A stretch of DNA of 64,000 nt from a virus. Location of the stretch: the IMG/VR virus record IMGVR_UViG_3300032156_000001, positions 1 through 64,000 of that record; one strand, written 5' to 3'. Both the position numbers and the translations under genes were made by a program. The notes beneath the pieces were generated by a model. The model ran no database searches, was not told where the DNA came from, and was given only the letters and a program-made list of their open reading frames with translations. This document shows, in pieces, positions 5,842 through 46,005 of the stretch (the stretch's first letter is position 1; the number at the start of each line of letters is the position of its first letter).

Positions 5842-6220
5842 CGAGGCCCCGCCGCGCAAGCCGCGGTTCGACGAGGAGATCCTTGCGGGCGCGCAGGCGC
5901 TGGCCGAGGCGCTGCTGCGCCGGCGGCCGGAGGTGAGGTCGGTGATGGTCGTGGTGGATTGGGACCTGAAGGGAGCCGACCTGCCGAACGCGACGCTGTG
6001 CAGCAAGCTGGCGGTCGACGCCGGCGTCTGCGGCAGCATGCTCGAGGCGATGGCCGTGGCGACCCATCAACTCATTCTGGAGACGGCGAGACAATCCGGG
6101 AGGAAGGATGCTCTGGACGGAGCTGGAACTCAGCGCGTGGACGCCGGAAGGCGAACCGCCAGCGAAGATAAAGCTGGGGGCCCCCCTGGCGCGCGGGATG
6201 GAAACGTGGACGTTCGTTGA
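5819..6220 (+). CDS. Hypothetical protein
   Basis: 133 residues from ATG 5819, five bases after GGAGGGG. The first ~90 residues look like a folded domain, with a strand-like VRSVMVVVDWDL and a helical EAMAVATHQLIL. The last ~38 residues are low-complexity and lie in the 113-base overlap with the next gene, so the tail is probably unconstrained. Family unknown. Confidence 0.65.
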   Translation: MPNEKKPDEAPPRKPRFDEEILAGAQALAEALLRRRPEVRSVMVVVDWDLKGADLPNATLCSKLAVDAGVCGSMLEAMAVATHQLILETARQSGRKDALDGAGTQRVDAGRRTASEDKAGGPPGARDGNVDVR

Positions 6221-7595
6221 AGAGAACGCCGTGATGGCGGAAATGGGCAGGAGCATTCGCGCCAAGGCCGTCGGGGGTGTGCTGCGCGACAAGTTCTACG
6301 TCCTGCTGGACGCGTGCGGCGGCGACGCGGAAGCCTTCGGCAGCGCGCTGCGCAACTGCATAGCCATCGGCTTTCAGAGCTCCACCGGGCAGCAGGGCCA
6401 CTATCTGCCGCTGCGGTACGCCTTCGTGATGGCCAAGATGTACGACAGGACCCATAATCCGCTTCCCGGCCTGGCGGGCCGGTGGTTCCTCGTCATCAAC
6501 GGGGAGGTCCATCGGCCGGTCGTGGAACCGTGCGCCGTCTGCGCCAAGTTCGAGGACAGCCGGATCGGCACGTGCCGTCCGATGACTCCCACGTGCTCGC
6601 AGAACGTGTTCCGTCCGGGCGAGCCGATAACGGGATGGTTCGACGCGCACGAGCCGGACCGGGCGAACCTGATGGAGACGTTCAGGCCGTCGTTCCGGCC
6701 GGCAAACCGGCTGTTCGCCAGGGGGGAGCCGGGCAAGCTGCTGACGGCGCACAGCCTCAGTACGGACAAGGAAGAATGCGACGAAGCCCGCAAGGTGCGG
6801 TCGGCACGGGCGCGCGTCGGCGCCGTGACGGCGACGTTCAAGCGCAAGGAATGCGCCCGCTGCGTCTTCTACCGCGCCGCCGACAGCGAGCACGCCGCGG
6901 TCCTTCTGTGCAGGGGGCGAAGCTGGTCAGGGGGCGCCTGCGGCGGCCCGTTCGTCGCAGCGGATCTGCGCGCCACGGCAAGGCACGTCCTTCGCCCGTG
7001 GATGTTGCACGCCTACGCCTGCGCCGGCGAGCTGCCGGACTCCGAGCCGTGGCGGAAACTCTGCAGGGACGACGTCCGGCACCGGACTTGGGACGTCTAC
7101 GTCGTCGGTCCGGTCTACGGCGAGCCTCCCCAGGTGGCGATAGGCGCCAAGTACCTGACGGGCAGCTGGACCAAGCAGTATCTGATGCCCTACAAAGAAT
7201 TCTGCAAGTCGTTGGGCGTGGCGCCCAACTCCAAGCGGTTCAAGGCCGACGCGCTGTCGACGGTCGAGCAGATGTTGATCGTCGCCACGATGACCCATCC
7301 CTGCCTGAAGACCCGCATTTCGTCGTACAGTGGCAGGCGGTGGGCCAGGCACTTCGGCACGGTCCGCGACGCGAACAAGCCCGTCAAGCTGCTGTTCGCC
7401 ACGCCGACGGGTAGAGTGCGCACTGAGGAGATCGCCGACGTCACGGACCTGTTCCGACTGGGTTTCCTGGAGCCTTGCGACATCTTCATGACGGCGCGGC
7501 GGAGGGCCGTGTCGGCGCGCATAGCGAAGAAGTATCAGGCGTTGTACGCAGCGGCGGAAAACGAGCCGCACGAGATCAACCAGGAGGACGCATGA
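6108..7595 (+). CDS. Hypothetical protein with cysteine clusters
   Basis: 495 residues, ATG start just after GGGAGGAAGG. Two cysteine groups (CAVCAKFED...CRPMTPTC near 143-165, and CARCVF...CRGRSWSGGACG near 247-270) suggest two metal-binding knuckles. The second half carries many aromatic residues and an Arg-rich segment (RRWARHFG; ARRRAVSARIAKKYQ). No enzyme motif recognised. Its 5' end overlaps the preceding gene by 113 bases. Confidence 0.75.
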   Translation: MLWTELELSAWTPEGEPPAKIKLGAPLARGMETWTFVEENAVMAEMGRSIRAKAVGGVLRDKFYVLLDACGGDAEAFGSALRNCIAIGFQSSTGQQGHYLPLRYAFVMAKMYDRTHNPLPGLAGRWFLVINGEVHRPVVEPCAVCAKFEDSRIGTCRPMTPTCSQNVFRPGEPITGWFDAHEPDRANLMETFRPSFRPANRLFARGEPGKLLTAHSLSTDKEECDEARKVRSARARVGAVTATFKRKECARCVFYRAADSEHAAVLLCRGRSWSGGACGGPFVAADLRATARHVLRPWMLHAYACAGELPDSEPWRKLCRDDVRHRTWDVYVVGPVYGEPPQVAIGAKYLTGSWTKQYLMPYKEFCKSLGVAPNSKRFKADALSTVEQMLIVATMTHPCLKTRISSYSGRRWARHFGTVRDANKPVKLLFATPTGRVRTEEIADVTDLFRLGFLEPCDIFMTARRRAVSARIAKKYQALYAAAENEPHEINQEDA

Positions 7596-38509: not shown

Positions 38510-40102
38510 ATGAACCGGACGCTGTTCAAGGGGAAGGGGTCCAGGGGCGCGCCGCCGGCCGACACGGTCAACGCGGCGGGCGGCGTGGCGTACAAGATGA
38601 CCGACGAGCAGGCGCTGGCCCAGCTGGCCGTGACGGGCTGCCTGTCGGACGTCTTCTACGCCAACGCGGAGATGCAGCTCGAGCAGGTCCTGGAAGTGGC
38701 GGCGAAGGTGCCCGCGGACTACGAGGCGCGGGTGGCGCTGTACGCCTGGGAGAAGGGCTACATGAAGGACATGCCGGCCCTGCTCTTGGCGCACCTGATG
38801 CGGCGCGACGTCGCGATGGCGAAGCGGGTCTTCCCGCGGATCGTCGTGAATGGCAAGATGCTGCGCAACTTCGTCCAGGTCATCCGCAGCGGGGTGACCG
38901 GGCGGAAGTCGATGGCCACGGCGCCGTCGGCGCTCGTGTCGGCGTACCTGGCCAAGCGGACCCCGCTGGAGCTCCTCAGGGACTCGATCGGCGACAAGCC
39001 CGACTTGGCGGACATCATCAGGCTGGCGCATCCCAAGCCGCCGAACGCGCAGTACCGCGCGTTCTACGCCTGGGCGCTCGGCAAGAAGCTGGACGCCGAG
39101 CAGCAGTCGGCGCTCCCGGAGATCGTTGCGGCGTACGACAAGATGTGCAAGACGGGCGTCCTCGATCTGGACGTAGTCACCAAGCTGCCGATTCAGATGC
39201 TCGGCAGCCTCAAGATGACCGACGACGCCTGGAAGAGGACCGCGGTCAACCTTCCCTGGCACGCGCTGCGGATGAACCTCAACGCGCTGGCCAAGCACGG
39301 CGTCTGGCAGGACAAGGAAGTCCTGCTCCGCTGCTGCGACAAACTGCGGGACCTCGAGACGATCAGGAAGGCGCGGGTCTTCCCGTACCAGCTCCTGATC
39401 GCCTACAAGATGACCGGTACGGACGTCCCGAACGAGCTGAGGGAGGCGCTGCAGGACGCCATGGAAGTGGCCGTCGAGAACGTTCCCGAACTGCCCGGCA
39501 GGACGTGGGTGTTCGTGGACGTCTCAGGCTCGATGCGCTCGCCCGTCACGGGAATACGCAAGGGGGCGACCACCGCGGTCCAGTGCGTGGACGTGGCCGC
39601 GCTGATGGCGGCCGCCATCCTCCGCCGGAACCGGGACTCCAACGTGCTGGCGTTCAACGACTCGGTCGTCGAGGGCTCCGACCGGATTGTGAACCGCCGC
39701 GACTCCGTGATGACGATCGCGGAGAAGCTGGCGGGGCGGCCGTCCGGCGGGACGAACGTCAGCGCGCCCATGCGCCAGCTGGTCGACCGGAACGAGCCGG
39801 CCGACACGGTCGTGTACGTGTCGGACAACCAGTCCTGGATCGATACCGCTGCCCATCAGTACGGGATGCAGGAGGCGACGGAGACCAAGCACCTGTGGCA
39901 GACGCTGAAGAAGCGCCGCCCGAAGGCGCGGATGGTCTGCGTCGACTTGCAGCCGTACCCCGACGCGCAGGCGCCGTCGTGCGCCGACACGCTCAATGTC
40001 GGGGGCTTCTCCGACGCCGTGTTCGACCTCATCGCCCTGTTCGCCAAGGGCGAGCTCACTCCCGACCACTGGGTCGGCGAGATCAGGAAAGTCCAACTGT
40101 GA
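38510..40102 (+). CDS. rsr: TROVE-domain protein (Ro60/Rsr ortholog)
   Basis: 530 residues, ATG after AGGAGGAGCGG. The N-terminal ~320 residues match the TROVE alpha-helical repeat ring (YEARVALYAWEKGYMKDM; ALLLAHLMR; PYQLLIAYKM), which binds Y RNAs and the ends of misfolded small RNAs. The C-terminal vWA domain has a complete metal site D337-V-S339-G-S341 and Thr in SGGTNVSAP. Bacterial Rsr works with Y RNAs in RNA decay and quality control. Y-RNA-like elements lie 1.3 kb downstream. A strong terminator follows. Confidence 0.9.
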   Translation: MNRTLFKGKGSRGAPPADTVNAAGGVAYKMTDEQALAQLAVTGCLSDVFYANAEMQLEQVLEVAAKVPADYEARVALYAWEKGYMKDMPALLLAHLMRRDVAMAKRVFPRIVVNGKMLRNFVQVIRSGVTGRKSMATAPSALVSAYLAKRTPLELLRDSIGDKPDLADIIRLAHPKPPNAQYRAFYAWALGKKLDAEQQSALPEIVAAYDKMCKTGVLDLDVVTKLPIQMLGSLKMTDDAWKRTAVNLPWHALRMNLNALAKHGVWQDKEVLLRCCDKLRDLETIRKARVFPYQLLIAYKMTGTDVPNELREALQDAMEVAVENVPELPGRTWVFVDVSGSMRSPVTGIRKGATTAVQCVDVAALMAAAILRRNRDSNVLAFNDSVVEGSDRIVNRRDSVMTIAEKLAGRPSGGTNVSAPMRQLVDRNEPADTVVYVSDNQSWIDTAAHQYGMQEATETKHLWQTLKKRRPKARMVCVDLQPYPDAQAPSCADTLNVGGFSDAVFDLIALFAKGELTPDHWVGEIRKVQL

Positions 40103-41371: not shown

Positions 41372-41546
41372 CGAGGTGAATGCGCGAGGGACTACATTTC
41401 GATGAGAAGGGGCCGGAGGCCCCACAGTGCCCGACGGAGCGCGCCGGTTCGCGGCGTCGGGGTTGTGCCACCGGACCTGGCCTTTGCGGATCCAGCGGTA
41501 ACGCGGGGCCTTGTAATGCTCGTCTCTCGCATGTGTCATCACCCCG
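41372..41546 (+). ncRNA. Y-RNA-like element E1 with Tyr-tRNA-like module
   Basis: Outer stem CGAGGTGA (41372-41379) with TCACCCCG (41539-41546, one mismatch), bulged A, TG/CA, then inner stem GCGAGGGAC (41384-41392) with GTCTCTCGC (41522-41530). The inner stem is followed by TA and a CAT-TTCG-ATG mini-hairpin, as in E2-E5. Inside lies a tRNA-like 3' part (GGCCC...) followed by a 5' part with the type-II D-arm pattern GCGG...GCGGTAACGC and GGGCC-TTGTAA. Joined, these would give a GGGCC-TTGTAAA-GGCCC anticodon arm (GUA, Tyr). No clear T-arm was found. Confidence 0.6.
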
Positions 41547-41554
41547 CTGTTTTA

Positions 41555-41695
41555 CGGCACGAATGCCTGGAGGGGACTACCTATCGGAGGAGGAGATGCA
41601 GGTGCGACTCCTGCCCGCCGGTCTCGATCCGGCGGTAGCTCAACAGCAGAGCGCCTAAAAAGTCTCTTCCGACTTCATCGTGCCGCCTTTTTTTT
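41555..41695 (+). ncRNA. Y-RNA-like element E2 with permuted tRNA module (YrlA-like)
   Basis: Outer stem CGGCACGA (41555-41562) with TCGTGCCG (41678-41685), bulged A, TG/CA, inner stem GGAGGGGAC (41569-41577) with GTCTCTTCC (41662-41670). Inside, in this order: T-arm GCAGG-TGCGACT-CCTGC (41598-41614), acceptor 3' strand CCGCCGG, a 7-base linker, acceptor 5' strand CCGGCGG (41629-41635), TA, and D-arm GCTC-AACAGCA-GAGC (to 41652). This is a tRNA fold with its halves reversed, as in bacterial YrlA Y RNAs that bind Rsr. A run of eight T follows. Confidence 0.78.
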
Positions 41696-41711
41696 CGCTT
41701 GCTGTTGGCAG

Positions 41712-41752
41712 GGCGGAGCCGGGCCGGCGCCATGATGGCGCGCCGGCTCCGC
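41712..41752 (+). other. Long hairpin just upstream of the tmRNA
   Basis: GCGGAGCCGG pairs with CCGGCTCCGC, and an inner GCGCC/GGCGC stem with loop ATGAT stacks on it. It ends five bases before the tmRNA 5' end, so it is a good candidate for RNase III or RNase P-linked processing of the tmRNA precursor. Confidence 0.6.
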
Positions 41753-41757
41753 AACAT

Positions 41758-42122
41758 GGGGGCGATCATAGAATCGACCCGACGTGAATGGGAGGAGTCG
41801 CGCGCCGAGGTGGCTCGGAGGCCTCGTTAAACACCGGGCAATGCAAACGTGCCAAGAACGACAAGTTCGTTCGCGGGGGCTTCGGCCTCCGCGCTGCTGC
41901 CTAATCGAACAGCGGCTAACCCCGCTCGCGCGCCCGGCCCGGGCGCGCGGGAAGATGACGGGCTGCCGCCCAGCAAGCTGGGCTAGGTCGGTGTACAACC
42001 GATGGAGTCGTGGGAAGCGACACGAGAGGCTTGCCGGTGGGCCGGACACAGACCATCGGACACGCGCGTAGAGGCTCGACCTGAAGCGGACGGGGACCCG
42101 AGTGCGAGTCTCGGCGCCTCCA
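41758..42122 (+). ncRNA. ssrA: tmRNA
   Basis: 365 bases, the usual tmRNA length. Acceptor GGGGGCG (41758-41764) pairs with CGCCTCC (42115-42121), discriminator A42122; CCA is not encoded. The 5' part has GAATCGACCCG like the conserved ATTCGACGG, and a first pseudoknot CCGAGG/CCTCG like that of E. coli. The tag frame is probably 41851-41901 with stop TAA: AKNDKFVRGGFGLRAAA. T-arm CCGAG-TGCGAGT-CTCGG has G where T55 is expected. It rescues stalled ribosomes and tags the nascent protein for proteolysis. The exact resume codon is inferred. Confidence 0.9.
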
Positions 42123-42149
42123 CAAATTTGTGCAGAATCGTAGGTGAAC

Positions 42150-42211
42150 GGCTCGAATGCCGAGGGGGACTACACTTGAAATGTAAAGTCTCCCTCGATT
42201 TTCATCGAGCC
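42150..42211 (+). ncRNA. Y-RNA-like element E3 (short form)
   Basis: 62 bases. GGCTCGA (42150-42156) with TCGAGCC (42205-42211), bulged A, TG/CA, inner stem CGAGGGGGAC with GTCTCCCTCG, terminal TA plus ACA/TGT mini-hairpin. Same architecture as E1 and E2 but without the tRNA module. Begins 28 bases after the tmRNA end. Confidence 0.6.
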
Positions 42212-42221
42212 TCCAACCTTT

Positions 42222-42278
42222 GACCCGAATGCCGTCCGGACTACATGGAAATGATGTCCGGCCACCTTTCATCGGGTC
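42222..42278 (+). ncRNA. Y-RNA-like element E4 (short form)
   Basis: 57 bases. GACCCGA (42222-42228) with TCGGGTC (42272-42278), bulged A, TG/CA, inner CCGGAC/GTCCGG, terminal TA plus CAT-GGAA-ATG. The outer stem differs from E3 in sequence but keeps pairing, i.e. compensatory change. Confidence 0.6.
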
Positions 42279-42297
42279 ACCATTTCGCTAGCGTGAC

Positions 42298-42358
42298 GGC
42301 TCGAATGCCGGGATGACTACATTGCCTAAATGAACGTCATCCCAATTCTCATCGAGCC
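42298..42358 (+). ncRNA. Y-RNA-like element E5 (short form)
   Basis: 61 bases. GGCTCGA (42298-42304) with TCGAGCC (42352-42358), bulged A, TG/CA, inner GGGATGAC/GTCATCCC, terminal TA plus CATT-GCCTA-AATG. The inner stem sequence differs from E3 and E4, yet the pairing and the flanking conserved bases remain. Confidence 0.6.
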
Positions 42359-42374
42359 ACCTTTGCGAGTCAGC

Positions 42375-42400
42375 GGGCGGCTTCGGCCGCCCTTGTCTTT
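42375..42400 (+). terminator. Rho-independent terminator of the RNA cluster
   Basis: GGGCGGC (42375-42381), UUCG-type loop, GCCGCCC (42386-42392), then TTGTCTTT. It follows the last Y-RNA-like element by 16 bases. Confidence 0.8.
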
Positions 42401-42720: not shown

Positions 42721-42948
42721 ATGTCCATTACCGTCAGGGTCGGCCCCATGGTGAAGGTGTTCGACCAGTTGGCGAACAAGACCGTCATGCAGATCCGACG
42801 CGACCTCGCGGGCCACATGGCCATCCCCGAGGCCTCTCGGGCGACGGTCAACAACGTGGACGTGAGCGAGGACCAGGTCGTCCAGGACTTCCAGACGATC
42901 GAGTTCGTGGTCCAGTCGGGTTCCAAGGGGACCGATTCGGTAGCGTAG
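42721..42948 (+). CDS. Ubiquitin-like beta-grasp protein
   Basis: 75 residues from ATG 42721, nine bases after AAGGAG; GTG 42715 is an alternative. The pattern is a ubiquitin/MoaD/ThiS-type beta-grasp: strands ITVRVG and VKVFDQ, helix TVMQIRRDLAGH, AIPEASRATVNN, and the last strand TIEFVVQSG. The chain ends GSKG-TDSVA, so cleavage after Gly70 would expose a C-terminal glycine for activation; a protease and an E1 are encoded downstream. Resembles the small protein C of plasmid PRTRC systems. Confidence 0.8.
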   Translation: MSITVRVGPMVKVFDQLANKTVMQIRRDLAGHMAIPEASRATVNNVDVSEDQVVQDFQTIEFVVQSGSKGTDSVA

Positions 42949-42971
42949 CGCAAGGGCCGAAGTAGAAGCCT

Positions 42972-43016
42972 GTCAGGCCCGCCGCAAGCTACCGGGCCCG
43001 CTTCGGCGGGCCTGAC
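42972..43016 (+). other. 13-bp inverted repeat between the ubiquitin-like and E2 genes
   Basis: GTCAGGCCCGCCG (42972-42984) pairs perfectly with CGGCGGGCCTGAC (43004-43016) around 19 bases. No T-run follows. It could protect the 3' end of the upstream message or cause partial termination, giving more of the modifier than of the enzymes. Confidence 0.65.
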
Positions 43017-43038
43017 AATTCGATAAAGGAATGAAGGA

Positions 43039-43758
43039 ATGGCGAACACGCCTTCTGCGACCAGGAGACAGATCCGCATAGAGGGAAACCTCGTGGCGGT
43101 GGAGAACGTCCAGGTCGAGCGCTATGTCGGAGTCGACGACTTCATCGACTGCATGACGAAGCGCCGGCCGGTGGCCAGCCCCATACTGCCCAGGAACTGC
43201 GTCCTGTACGCGAACAACACGGCGGACACGTTCCGCCAGCTGTTCGTCATCCAGGAGCCTGCCGGCATACGGCGGATAAGGTACAAGCACGACCGGGCCA
43301 GCGGCCCCGGCGAGGGGATCAACATAGAGGTGTCCATGCCCATGCTGCTGTGGTTCTTCACGTGCACGGACATGTCGCTGGCGTCGCTGAGGTGCGCCGC
43401 CGTGCGGCGCGACCTGTCGGCCGTGGCCGATCCGATGGCCACGCCGCTCCTGAACCCACTGCTGCCGAACTTCCGCGATAACGGCACTGGCGTCATGTGC
43501 ACCGGGCGCATGACGGTCGGCCAGCAGCCGACCCTGGCCAAGACGGTGGACGCGCTGATGCGCGCGATCTGGGATTCCGAGTGGAACCTGGACCTCGGCA
43601 TCGACTACGCGAACACCGGCCTGGGCGACATGCGCGACTGGGCGCACAAGAGCACCGGTCAGCCGGGCTTCCACGAGCGGATCGCGTTTCCGCCGTACGA
43701 GCCCAATCAGCTGGGCGGGATGGTGCGGCGCGCGCTGGCGCAGCGGGACGGTGACTAG
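43039..43758 (+). CDS. E2-like ubiquitin-conjugating enzyme (PRTRC protein B-like)
   Basis: 239 residues. The E2 signature is TPLLNPLLPNFRDNGTGVMC (135-154): like PNxxxxGxxC of E2 enzymes and the NVYxxGxVCxG pattern of PRTRC protein B, placing the acceptor cysteine at Cys154. Upstream strands and MLLWFFTC fit the E2 core. It would receive the ubiquitin-like protein from the E1 and pass it to a target. Located between the modifier gene and the JAB and E1 genes. Confidence 0.78.
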   Translation: MANTPSATRRQIRIEGNLVAVENVQVERYVGVDDFIDCMTKRRPVASPILPRNCVLYANNTADTFRQLFVIQEPAGIRRIRYKHDRASGPGEGINIEVSMPMLLWFFTCTDMSLASLRCAAVRRDLSAVADPMATPLLNPLLPNFRDNGTGVMCTGRMTVGQQPTLAKTVDALMRAIWDSEWNLDLGIDYANTGLGDMRDWAHKSTGQPGFHERIAFPPYEPNQLGGMVRRALAQRDGD

Positions 43759-44120
43759 TGCTGCGCACCAGGGGCGAGCTGCTTACTTTCATCGGCGCCA
43801 AGGAGGACATGCGCCGGAGAGACGAAGCCAAAGCCGAGGCGAAGGCCGGGAATGAGCGGCCGAAGACCGACATATTCGCCGCCCTGGCGCGCGTGCCGCC
43901 CGTGCCGATAACCTCGCTGGAAGGGATAGCCGAGTTCGCGCTCGTCGTGCCCGACCCGGAGACGCTGGCCGAGATGCCGGGCACGCCGGCGCAGGTGCTG
44001 GTGTCGCAGTTCGTGTTCTACGCGAGGAAGTCGTTCCAGCTCGCGGAGGCGATGCGCCGCGACGCCGGCCAGTTCGAGCTGATACGCGCCGCGACGATGC
44101 GCCTGGAGGAGAGACGGTGA
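43758..44120 (+). CDS. Hypothetical protein of the ubiquitin-like cassette
   Basis: 120 residues from GTG 43758, overlapping the E2 stop (TAGTG). Helical, basic N-terminus; FALVVPDPETLAEMPG in the middle. No catalytic motif. Its tight overlap on both sides suggests it belongs to the conjugation system, perhaps as an adaptor, but I recognise no family. Confidence 0.7.
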   Translation: MLRTRGELLTFIGAKEDMRRRDEAKAEAKAGNERPKTDIFAALARVPPVPITSLEGIAEFALVVPDPETLAEMPGTPAQVLVSQFVFYARKSFQLAEAMRRDAGQFELIRAATMRLEERR

Positions 44121-45265
44121 GCGTTCCGATAAAGATCTATGTGATGGAGGAAGGGATGAAGATGCCGGACGACGACCTCTGCTACCTGGTCGGCGCCAAC
44201 GGCATCTTCAAGAGGACGCGATGCCCGCTGTTCGAGATCGTGATCAAGGTGTCGGAGATACCCGGCTTGGCCAACCTGGGTACGTTGGTCAGGCCGACGG
44301 TCGTGAAGATCCCCGAGCCGCTGCTGCGGCAGGTGGAATCGTTCTTCAAGGCCGTGTACGAGAAGCACAAAGCCGAAGCCGTAGTCCTGGTGCTGTACAA
44401 CGAGAAGGAGAAGGCGTGGAAGCTGCTCATACCCGACCAGGAGGTCATGTGCGGCCACGCCGACTACGACCTGAAGAAGGTGGCCATCGAATCCGGCCAC
44501 GTGCTGTTCGGTTCGATGCACAGCCACGGCAGCATGTCGGCCTTCCATTCCGGGACCGACGACAAGGATGAGTGCAAGTTCGACGGCATCCATATCACCA
44601 TCGGCGCGGTTGACGGCACGACGCTCAGCTACGCCGTGCGGTGGTCGATGGCCGGCATGCTCATCAAGGCCGACCTGGAGGACGTCGTCGACCTGCCGAA
44701 GCCGCTCAAGGTGCCGTGCGAGGAGTCGTGGCTGGACCGCGTCAAGACGAGAGGGGCCGCGCAGATCGGGTATCTGGCCCGGCCTGCCGGCCAGGACTTT
44801 CAACGGTGGAGGGAGGACTACGGCGAAGGATGGTCGGAAGAAGCGGCGGCACAGGCACCGGCGTCGCCGGCAGCGTTACCAACCGGGACCGTTACTGTAG
44901 ACCCGCAGGGCGCGGTGAAGGAGGTTTCCGCGGGCCCTTTCGCGGATGGCAAGGCCCTCTTCCAGGCGCGCGATACCGGAGACTCCTCGAATGAGCGGAA
45001 GTTCCCGCTCGCCCCGACGCGGCGCGTGCTGGATCCCAAGCTCCTGGCCGGCGAGCTGCTCGGCCTGGCGGAAGAGGAGAAGGCATATTGGGCCCTGACC
45101 GACGAGGTTCTTGAGGGGCCGCAGGGCTTTGCCACGTCGGAGGACTACCTCACCTATCTGGCCGATTGGCAGGATTATTTGGAGAGCGTGATCGTCACGG
45201 CGCAGGACATGGTCGATTACGAATCCGTCCAATACGCGCGCGCCGGCGCGGGCAAGGGGGGCTGA
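44117..45265 (+). CDS. JAB/JAMM-domain protease (deubiquitinase-like)
   Basis: 382 residues from GTG 44117. JAMM zinc-protease motif H135-S-H137-x7-S145-x2-D148 (SMHSHGSMSAFHSGTD), with Glu87 (AEAVVLVLY) as the likely catalytic acid. Such enzymes cleave isopeptide bonds or trim precursors of ubiquitin-like proteins; here it could cut the modifier after Gly70 and remove it from targets. C-terminal ~150 residues are a Pro/Ala linker and a helical domain. Overlaps the E1 gene (TGATG). Confidence 0.88.
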   Translation: MSVPIKIYVMEEGMKMPDDDLCYLVGANGIFKRTRCPLFEIVIKVSEIPGLANLGTLVRPTVVKIPEPLLRQVESFFKAVYEKHKAEAVVLVLYNEKEKAWKLLIPDQEVMCGHADYDLKKVAIESGHVLFGSMHSHGSMSAFHSGTDDKDECKFDGIHITIGAVDGTTLSYAVRWSMAGMLIKADLEDVVDLPKPLKVPCEESWLDRVKTRGAAQIGYLARPAGQDFQRWREDYGEGWSEEAAAQAPASPAALPTGTVTVDPQGAVKEVSAGPFADGKALFQARDTGDSSNERKFPLAPTRRVLDPKLLAGELLGLAEEEKAYWALTDEVLEGPQGFATSEDYLTYLADWQDYLESVIVTAQDMVDYESVQYARAGAGKGG

Positions 45266-46005
45266 TGAAGCTGTCTTTCGATTCGGTCACGGTTGTGGGC
45301 TGCGGGGGCATCGGCACTTGGCTGGTGCCCCCGCTGGCCCGCATCCTGGCCTGCCAGGGGTTCAAGGGCCCCGTCCACCTGTGGGACGGGGACAAATACG
45401 AGGAGGGGAACGCCAACAGGCAGGAATTCGCCCCGGCGCACCTCGGCGTCAACAAGGCCGAGGCGATGGCCAACGTCGTGCGCGCCAGCCATCCGGTGCT
45501 GGACGTCGTGGACCACAGGGAATTTGTCCTGCCTGACAATGTCGACCAGGCGGTGGCGGAGTATGGCCTGATGGTGACGTGCCTGGACAACAACCCGGCG
45601 CGCGCGCTTATAGAGGGCGCGGCGCGCAAACTGAGGAACGTCTGCGTCCTCAGCGCCGGCAACGAGCTCATGCACGGCAACGTGCACGTCCTGATCCGGC
45701 GGGACGGGAAGGACGCCACGCAGCCACTGCTGCTGCGGCACCCGGAAGTGGGCACGGACAAGAGGGGCGACAGGATCGACGGCTGCGAGCGCCTGATAGA
45801 GGAGGGCGAGACGCAGCTGCTGACGACCAACTTCATGGCGGCCGCGTCGGTGCTGTTCGCCCTGCACCTGCTGTGCACGCACGGCGAACGCGCCGATGGG
45901 CGCAAGCAGGAAACAGTGCCGCAGGAGATCTGGTTCGGCATCTGGGACGGGATCAACGTCGTGCCGGTTTTCAAGGGGAAGGAGGCCGAGCCGTGCCGTT
46001 CGTGA
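45265..46005 (+). CDS. E1-like ThiF/MoeB-family activating enzyme
   Basis: 246 residues from ATG 45265. Nucleotide-binding loop GCGGIGT (12-18), LWDGDKYEEGNANRQEF (39-55) with the conserved Asp and Arg, GVNKAEAMA, and MVTCLDNNPAR (103-113). Cys174 in RIDGCERL, followed by TTNFMAAA, is a good candidate for the thioester cysteine. It would adenylate the C-terminus of the ubiquitin-like protein and load it on the E2. Confidence 0.88.
   Translation: MKLSFDSVTVVGCGGIGTWLVPPLARILACQGFKGPVHLWDGDKYEEGNANRQEFAPAHLGVNKAEAMANVVRASHPVLDVVDHREFVLPDNVDQAVAEYGLMVTCLDNNPARALIEGAARKLRNVCVLSAGNELMHGNVHVLIRRDGKDATQPLLLRHPEVGTDKRGDRIDGCERLIEEGETQLLTTNFMAAASVLFALHLLCTHGERADGRKQETVPQEIWFGIWDGINVVPVFKGKEAEPCRS

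What the first reader, a model, noticed from the sequence alone, without database searches (positions are those of the whole stretch)
41372..42358. Five tandem Y-RNA-like elements around a phage tmRNA
E1 (41372-41546), E2 (41555-41685), E3 (42150-42211), E4 (42222-42278) and E5 (42298-42358) share one architecture. Each has a 7-8 bp outer stem, a bulged A, a TG/CA step and a pyrimidine-leaning 3' internal loop. An inner stem closed by GAC/GTC follows, then TA and a mini-hairpin. Stems vary in sequence but keep pairing. Y RNAs bind Ro60 through a stem with a bulge and an asymmetric loop, and a TROVE/Ro60 gene lies 1.3 kb upstream. A promoter (41325) and terminator (42375) frame the set. Single bacterial Y RNAs beside rsr are known; a tandem array of long and short forms with a tmRNA in the middle is new to me.
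Basis: partly seen in the sequence, partly recalled or inferred. Interest (0 to 1): 0.93.

Follow-up and report, generated by a model that had tools for sequence, protein, structure and literature searches.

The report
Phage Y-RNA array beside Ro60
A large phage carries five tandem Y RNAs (small RNAs that dock on the Ro60 ring protein) beside its own Ro60 gene; such arrays turn out to be the usual arrangement in related phages and bacteria, and the only unusual feature here is a tmRNA (ribosome-rescue RNA) gene sitting inside the array.

Summary
A covariance model trained without any window sequence finds E3, E4 and E5 (E 3e-8 to 2e-6 in 508 kb). 17 of 19 base pairs show compensatory changes across 48 distinct sequences. 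Rfam, below its thresholds, calls E2 YrlA and E3/E5 YrlB. The neighbour is a genuine Ro60/Rsr protein.

So these are bacterial-type Y RNAs, most likely partners of the phage Ro60. The tandem long/short array is not new: the same model finds two or more copies in 22 of 30 phage records of this Ro60 clade and 354 elements in 80 bacterial rsr loci. Whole Nannocystis genomes have 6-9 copies, only beside rsr. Salmonella already has yrlB-yrlA in tandem.

What remains unusual is the tmRNA between E2 and E3; no other locus examined has it. Its T-loop shares a rare UGCGA with E2.

Verdict: new member of a known kind with an odd tmRNA insertion. Expression, Ro60 binding and PNPase tethering are untested.

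The parts
38510..40102 (+). Ro60/Rsr (TROVE + vWA) gene, 530 aa, 1.3 kb upstream of the array
   Evidence: Pfam vWA_Ro60 7e-16 and TROVE 2.5e-5, both over cut-off; D. radiodurans Rsr 2nvo aligns over residues 20-516, E 4e-15
41372..41546 (+). E1: long Y RNA with an unassigned apical module
   Evidence: R2 28.4 bits, E 1.1e-3, not in training; no T- or D-arm recognised
41555..41685 (+). E2: long Y RNA, YrlA type
   Evidence: Rfam YrlA 39.5 bits, E 6e-7, below gathering score 69; R2 29.4 bits
41598..41652 (+). tRNA-like module of E2: T-arm 41598-41614 (GCAGG-UGCGACU-CCUGC), middle hairpin 41615-41635, D-arm 41636-41652 (UAGCUCAACAGCAGAGC)
   Evidence: YrlA alignment; pattern search
41758..42125 (+). 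tmRNA between E2 and E3
   Evidence: RF00023 76.3 bits; ARAGORN tag AKNDKFVRGGFGLRAAA
42150..42211 (+). E3: short Y RNA, YrlB type
   Evidence: R1 E 2.7e-8; Rfam YrlB 25.4 bits, below gathering score
42222..42278 (+). E4: short Y RNA
   Evidence: R1 E 1.6e-6
42298..42358 (+). E5: short Y RNA, YrlB type
   Evidence: R1 E 9.7e-7; Rfam YrlB 23.7 bits, below gathering score
42375..42402 (+). terminator-like hairpin with T-rich tail after E5
   Evidence: called by the consensus scan, chance not excluded

Best explanation
E1-E5 are five Y RNAs of the bacterial YrlA/YrlB kind, encoded by the phage as cofactors of its own Ro60 (Rsr) ring protein. Shown here: they belong by sequence and structure to the family that sits in arrays beside rsr in bacteria and related phages, with the conserved basal module (outer stem, bulged A, UG step, asymmetric loop, inner stem ending before UACA). 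Inferred: the basal module binds the phage Ro60. The short forms (E3-E5) act as plain ligands or gates that occlude and stabilise the ring. The long forms carry effector modules; E2's tRNA-like module would tether host PNPase, since no RNase-PH-fold enzyme is found in the phage record, giving a phage-directed Ro60/Y RNA/PNPase (RYPER-like) machine for decay or quality control of structured RNA (rRNA, tRNA, tRNA fragments) during infection. The tmRNA is probably a separate ribosome-rescue RNA that sits in the same small-RNA cluster. Confidence: about 0.95 that they are Y RNAs of this family, about 0.85 that they bind the phage Ro60, about 0.45 for the PNPase step.
For: Independent CM hits and exact recovery of all five. 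Compensatory changes in 17 of 19 pairs. All 93 phage hits on the TROVE strand. R2 hits 27 of 30 records of this Ro60 clade and none of 9 phages with distant Ro60 proteins. The same model finds 354 copies in 80 bacterial rsr loci, and in four 11-13 Mb genomes it hits only the rsr array. YrlA/YrlB similarity in Rfam. Genuine Ro60 protein with vWA domain. YrlA basal stem binds Rsr and the tRNA-like domain binds PNPase in work summarised in PMC8394870. No phage PNPase-fold gene found.
Against: Rfam scores are below the gathering thresholds, although Nannocystis copies beside rsr mostly are too. E1 is recovered only by R2, at E 1e-3, and has no known apical module. E2's T-loop lacks U55. No expression or binding data exist. 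The promoter is weak.
Confidence: 0.7

Rival explanations
1. The Y RNAs are mainly decoys or sensors: tRNA-like E2 and the rest of the array titrate host anticodon nucleases or tRNA-processing and modifying enzymes, and Ro60 only stabilises them.
For: E2 mimics tRNA. [quoted passage not shown] The array has one tRNA-like RNA and a tmRNA.
Against: Three of the five (E3-E5) have no tRNA-like part, and the basal module, not the tRNA part, is what all five share. E2 has no anticodon arm equivalent by the YrlA model.
Confidence: 0.17
2. The tmRNA and the Y RNAs form one functional cassette in which ribosome rescue is coupled to Ro60-guided RNA decay.
For: The tmRNA lies between E2 and E3 on the same strand. 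In Mx1 the tmRNA is 1.0 kb from two Y RNAs. tmRNA and E2 share UGC in the T-loop, seen in 2 of 149 phage tRNAs.
Against: Only 4 of 33 relatives have a tmRNA above cut-off, 5.5 to 57 kb from the nearest Y RNA. No credible tmRNA within 5 kb of 80 bacterial rsr genes. E2 is followed by a T8 run that could end transcription before the tmRNA.
Confidence: 0.08
3. Chance hairpins in a G+C-rich intergenic stretch.
For: Short G+C-rich inverted repeats occur by chance here and score up to 7.5 bits with R1 when filters are off.
Against: E3-E5 score 30-36 bits in the same test. GAAUGC and UACA are shared with distant phages and bacteria. Strand agreement 93 of 93 and strong covariation.
Confidence: 0.02

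Closest known systems
YrlA (Rfam RF02553), the tRNA-mimicking bacterial Y RNA
   Same: E2 matches the model end to end with T-arm, middle hairpin and D-arm inside a Y-RNA basal stem
   Different: 39.5 bits, below the gathering score of 69; T-loop UGCGA instead of UUCGA; 131 nt; phage-encoded
YrlB (Rfam RF02565), the short Salmonella Y RNA
   Same: E3 and E5 match end to end, with the GAAUGC and GGA(N)UACA motifs
   Different: 24-25 bits, far below the gathering score of 97; three short copies instead of one
Y-RNA arrays beside bacterial rsr, including Salmonella rsr-yrlBA-rtcBA
   Same: Same strand as rsr, long and short forms mixed; 354 model hits in 80 loci, 6-9 copies in Nannocystis
   Different: Array starts 1.3 kb after rsr with two ORFs between; no RtcB in the phage; tmRNA inside the array
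Mycobacteriophage and Streptomyces phage Ro60 with YrlA-like RNA
   Same: Phage-encoded Ro60 with an upstream YrlA-like signal: ET08 37.4 bits, Blueeyedbeauty 34 bits; mycobacteriophage Y RNAs are reported (PMC12282133 citing Chen et al. 2014)
   Different: Ro60 only about 22-25% identical; R2 finds no copies there
Myxococcus phage Mx1
   Same: Closest annotated phage by Ro60 (46%); two Y RNAs and a tmRNA 1.0 kb away
   Different: Y RNAs lie among tRNA genes 11 kb upstream of Ro60; tmRNA T-loop is the usual UUCGAUU

Membership tests
Bacterial Y RNA (Yrl) family | Basal stem with bulge and asymmetric loop, conserved across relatives | tested here: met
   R1/R2 hits and covariation
Bacterial Y RNA (Yrl) family | Encoded near a Ro60/Rsr gene | tested here: met
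   TROVE/vWA_Ro60 gene 1.3 kb upstream, same strand
Bacterial Y RNA (Yrl) family | At least one copy with a tRNA-like module | tested here: met
   E2, YrlA alignment with T- and D-arms
Bacterial Y RNA (Yrl) family | RNA is expressed and binds Ro60/Rsr | not testable with these tools
   No transcript or binding data; needs experiment
Rfam YrlA RF02553 | Score at or above the curated gathering score (69 bits) | tested here: not met
   E2 39.5 bits; several Nannocystis copies beside rsr are below it as well, so E2 is YrlA-like, not a curated member
Rfam YrlB RF02565 | Score at or above the curated gathering score (97 bits) | tested here: not met
   E3 25.4, E5 23.7 bits; E4 and E1 not listed
tmRNA RF00023 | Gathering score 47 bits and open tag frame | tested here: met
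   76.3 bits; tag AKNDKFVRGGFGLRAAA*
RYPER (Ro60/Y RNA/PNPase) | Y RNA tethers PNPase to Ro60 | not testable with these tools
   No phage PNPase-fold gene found; host PNPase would be needed

The most novel reading that the evidence does not exclude
The tmRNA is an integral member of the Y-RNA cassette: the phage couples trans-translation with Ro60-guided RNA decay, and the shared UGCGA T-loop of tmRNA and E2 reflects a common selected change, for example escape from host T-loop modification or from a tRNA-targeting defence.
Probability: 0.08. Interest if true: 0.75.

Novelty: new member of a known kind. Interest (0 to 1): 0.37.

Why it matters
It adds a well-supported phage case to the little-studied Ro60/Y RNA system, and shows that multi-copy Y-RNA arrays mixing long and short forms are the usual genomic state of this Rsr clade in phages and bacteria alike. 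A phage with a compact Ro60 gene and five RNAs would be a tractable place to ask why so many Y RNAs are kept and what Ro60 does in infection.

Tried and rejected
DNA-level search of the cassette in 50,697 phage records: no match. R1 with filters off did not reach E1/E2; R2 was needed. Searched the phage for SmpB, PNPase-fold and RtcB genes: none. R2 on actinophage, Thermus and Caulobacter TROVE phages: no copies at E<=0.001, only one weak minus-strand match in Rhodococcus phage Trina (17.1 bits, E 0.13), judged chance. A first T-loop count was wrong because it guessed the loop position; it was redone from ARAGORN's bracket line. One ARAGORN tmRNA call in bacterial locus L124 overlaps rsr and is judged spurious. 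Considered that E1 is a YrlA with a degenerate tRNA module: no T- or D-arm found. Chen et al. 2014, the key paper on phage Y RNAs, and three related papers are not held, so how much of the array multiplicity is already published could not be checked. Structure prediction was not used, as it would not settle RNA binding.

Full report
WHAT IS THERE. The window is the first 64 kb of a 188,118-base virus record. A 530-aa ORF at 38510-40102 is a Ro60/Rsr protein: Pfam vWA_Ro60 (7e-16) and TROVE (2.5e-5) pass their cut-offs, and D. radiodurans Rsr (2nvo) aligns over residues 20-516. After two small ORFs comes a stretch, 41372-42375, with E1, E2, a tmRNA, E3, E4 and E5.

IS IT REAL. A covariance model (R1) from four Y-RNA-like elements of two other phages and one unverified contig, without any window sequence, finds E3, E5 and E4 with E-values of 2.7e-8, 9.7e-7 and 1.6e-6 in 508 kb. 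With filters off, the next best site in the same 2 kb scores 7.5 bits against 30-36. All 93 hits in 34 sources lie on the TROVE strand. On the structure-fitted alignment of 48 distinct sequences, 94% of cells pair, 17 of 19 pairs change on both sides, and covariation is 0.82 against 0.21 shuffled and 0.09-0.18 for slid structures. That alignment leans towards its structure, so the numbers are upper estimates, but the gap to the controls is large.

WHAT THEY ARE. Rfam gives E2 as YrlA over the full model (39.5 bits, E 6e-7) and E3/E5 as YrlB (25.4 and 23.7 bits); all are below gathering scores. Those thresholds are narrow: most Nannocystis copies directly beside rsr also fall below them. E2 has the YrlA order T-arm, middle hairpin, D-arm. 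Across related phages the long forms often carry a T-arm and the short ones almost never do (26 of 41 long, 2 of 44 short). E1 is long but has no recognisable tRNA-like module; its assignment is the least secure. The core signature is GAAUGC - inner stem - UACA - 3' inner strand - UUGUC or CAUC. The window's UG/CA step is a Watson-Crick version of the U.G/G.U step seen in most relatives.

HOW COMMON. Per-genome searches with R2 hit 25 of 28 IMG/VR relatives, Mx1 and the window, 22 of these 27 with two or more copies (near-duplicate records included), and none of nine phages whose TROVE protein is distant. Locus counts reach 7 (L007), 8 (L025, among tRNAs) and about 11 (L013). A scan of bacterial genomes with the phage Ro60 gave 80 loci (45-51% identity) in Acidobacteria, Verrucomicrobia, Proteobacteria, Nannocystis and others. 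R2 finds 354 elements there, every one of the 300 listed on the rsr strand. In four Nannocystis genomes of 11-13 Mb there are 6, 6, 9 and 8 copies, all in the rsr array.

THE tmRNA. RF00023 at 41758-42125, 76 bits, with a plausible tag and a G3.U70 pair, the usual alanine identity element (read from the sequence; established knowledge). Among 33 phage relatives 4 records have a tmRNA above cut-off, at 5.5 to 57 kb from the nearest Y RNA. In Mx1 it is 1.0 kb from two Y RNAs. No credible tmRNA lies within 5 kb of 80 bacterial rsr genes. A tmRNA inside the array was seen only here. Its T-loop (UGCGAGU) and that of E2 (UGCGACU) both have G at position 55. Of 149 phage tRNA T-loops only two begin UGC, and one other phage Y RNA, L011 2192-2326, has UGCAACU. 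This is suggestive but post hoc.

MECHANISM. Shown: family membership, selection on the basal module, linkage to Ro60. Inferred from D. radiodurans and Salmonella work (summarised in PMC8394870, and PMC4726728): the basal stem binds Ro60; YrlA-type modules tether PNPase; Y RNAs gate access to the ring. No RNase-PH-fold enzyme, RtcB or SmpB gene was found in the phage record, so these partners would be the host's; the record may be incomplete. The Ro60 segment RLAHPKP is kept (His in 22 of 31 aligned phage proteins, Arg in 9). From memory, the matching His of vertebrate Ro60 is needed for Y RNA binding; this is a lead, not a test.

LITERATURE. PMC12282133 cites Chen et al. 2014 for Y RNAs in mycobacteriophages and suspects them in a Listeria phage from abundant transcripts near an Rsr homologue. 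Jumbo-phage TROVE proteins are noted in PMC7824862. The Chen paper itself is not held, so array multiplicity may already be reported there.

VERDICT. Confirmed observation; correct family; novelty claim reduced to the position of the tmRNA. New member of a known kind.

Noticed in passing
window 41603-41609 and 42103-42109: The T-loops of E2 and of the phage tmRNA both begin UGCGA, with G instead of U at position 55; only 2 of 149 phage tRNA T-loops examined begin UGC.
   Followed up: partly
window 41686-41694: E2's G+C-rich outer stem is followed by a run of eight T, so E2 may double as an intrinsic terminator and split the cluster into two transcripts.
   Followed up: no
window 42721-46002: Directly downstream lies a likely ubiquitin-like cluster: a 75-aa ORF, unknown ORFs, a Prok-JAB protein (44117-45262, E 2.5e-6) and a ThiF/E1-like protein (45259-46002, E 3e-22); Prok-JAB is over cut-off in only 1 of 22 related records, this one.
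   Followed up: partly
L025 5659-9879: Eight Y-RNA hits are interleaved with a dense phage tRNA cluster; ARAGORN calls one of them an unassignable tRNA (6200-6268), so annotation pipelines may mistake YrlA-type RNAs for odd tRNAs.
   Followed up: partly
L013 9750-11815: About eleven Y-RNA hits in 2 kb downstream of a phage TROVE gene, the largest array seen here.
   Followed up: no
L002 (OR845705.1) 1-1748: A contig filed as an Escherichia phage holds a 46%-identical Ro60 fragment and three Y RNAs; it is an unverified 1.7-kb low-coverage contig and may be bacterial contamination.
   Followed up: no
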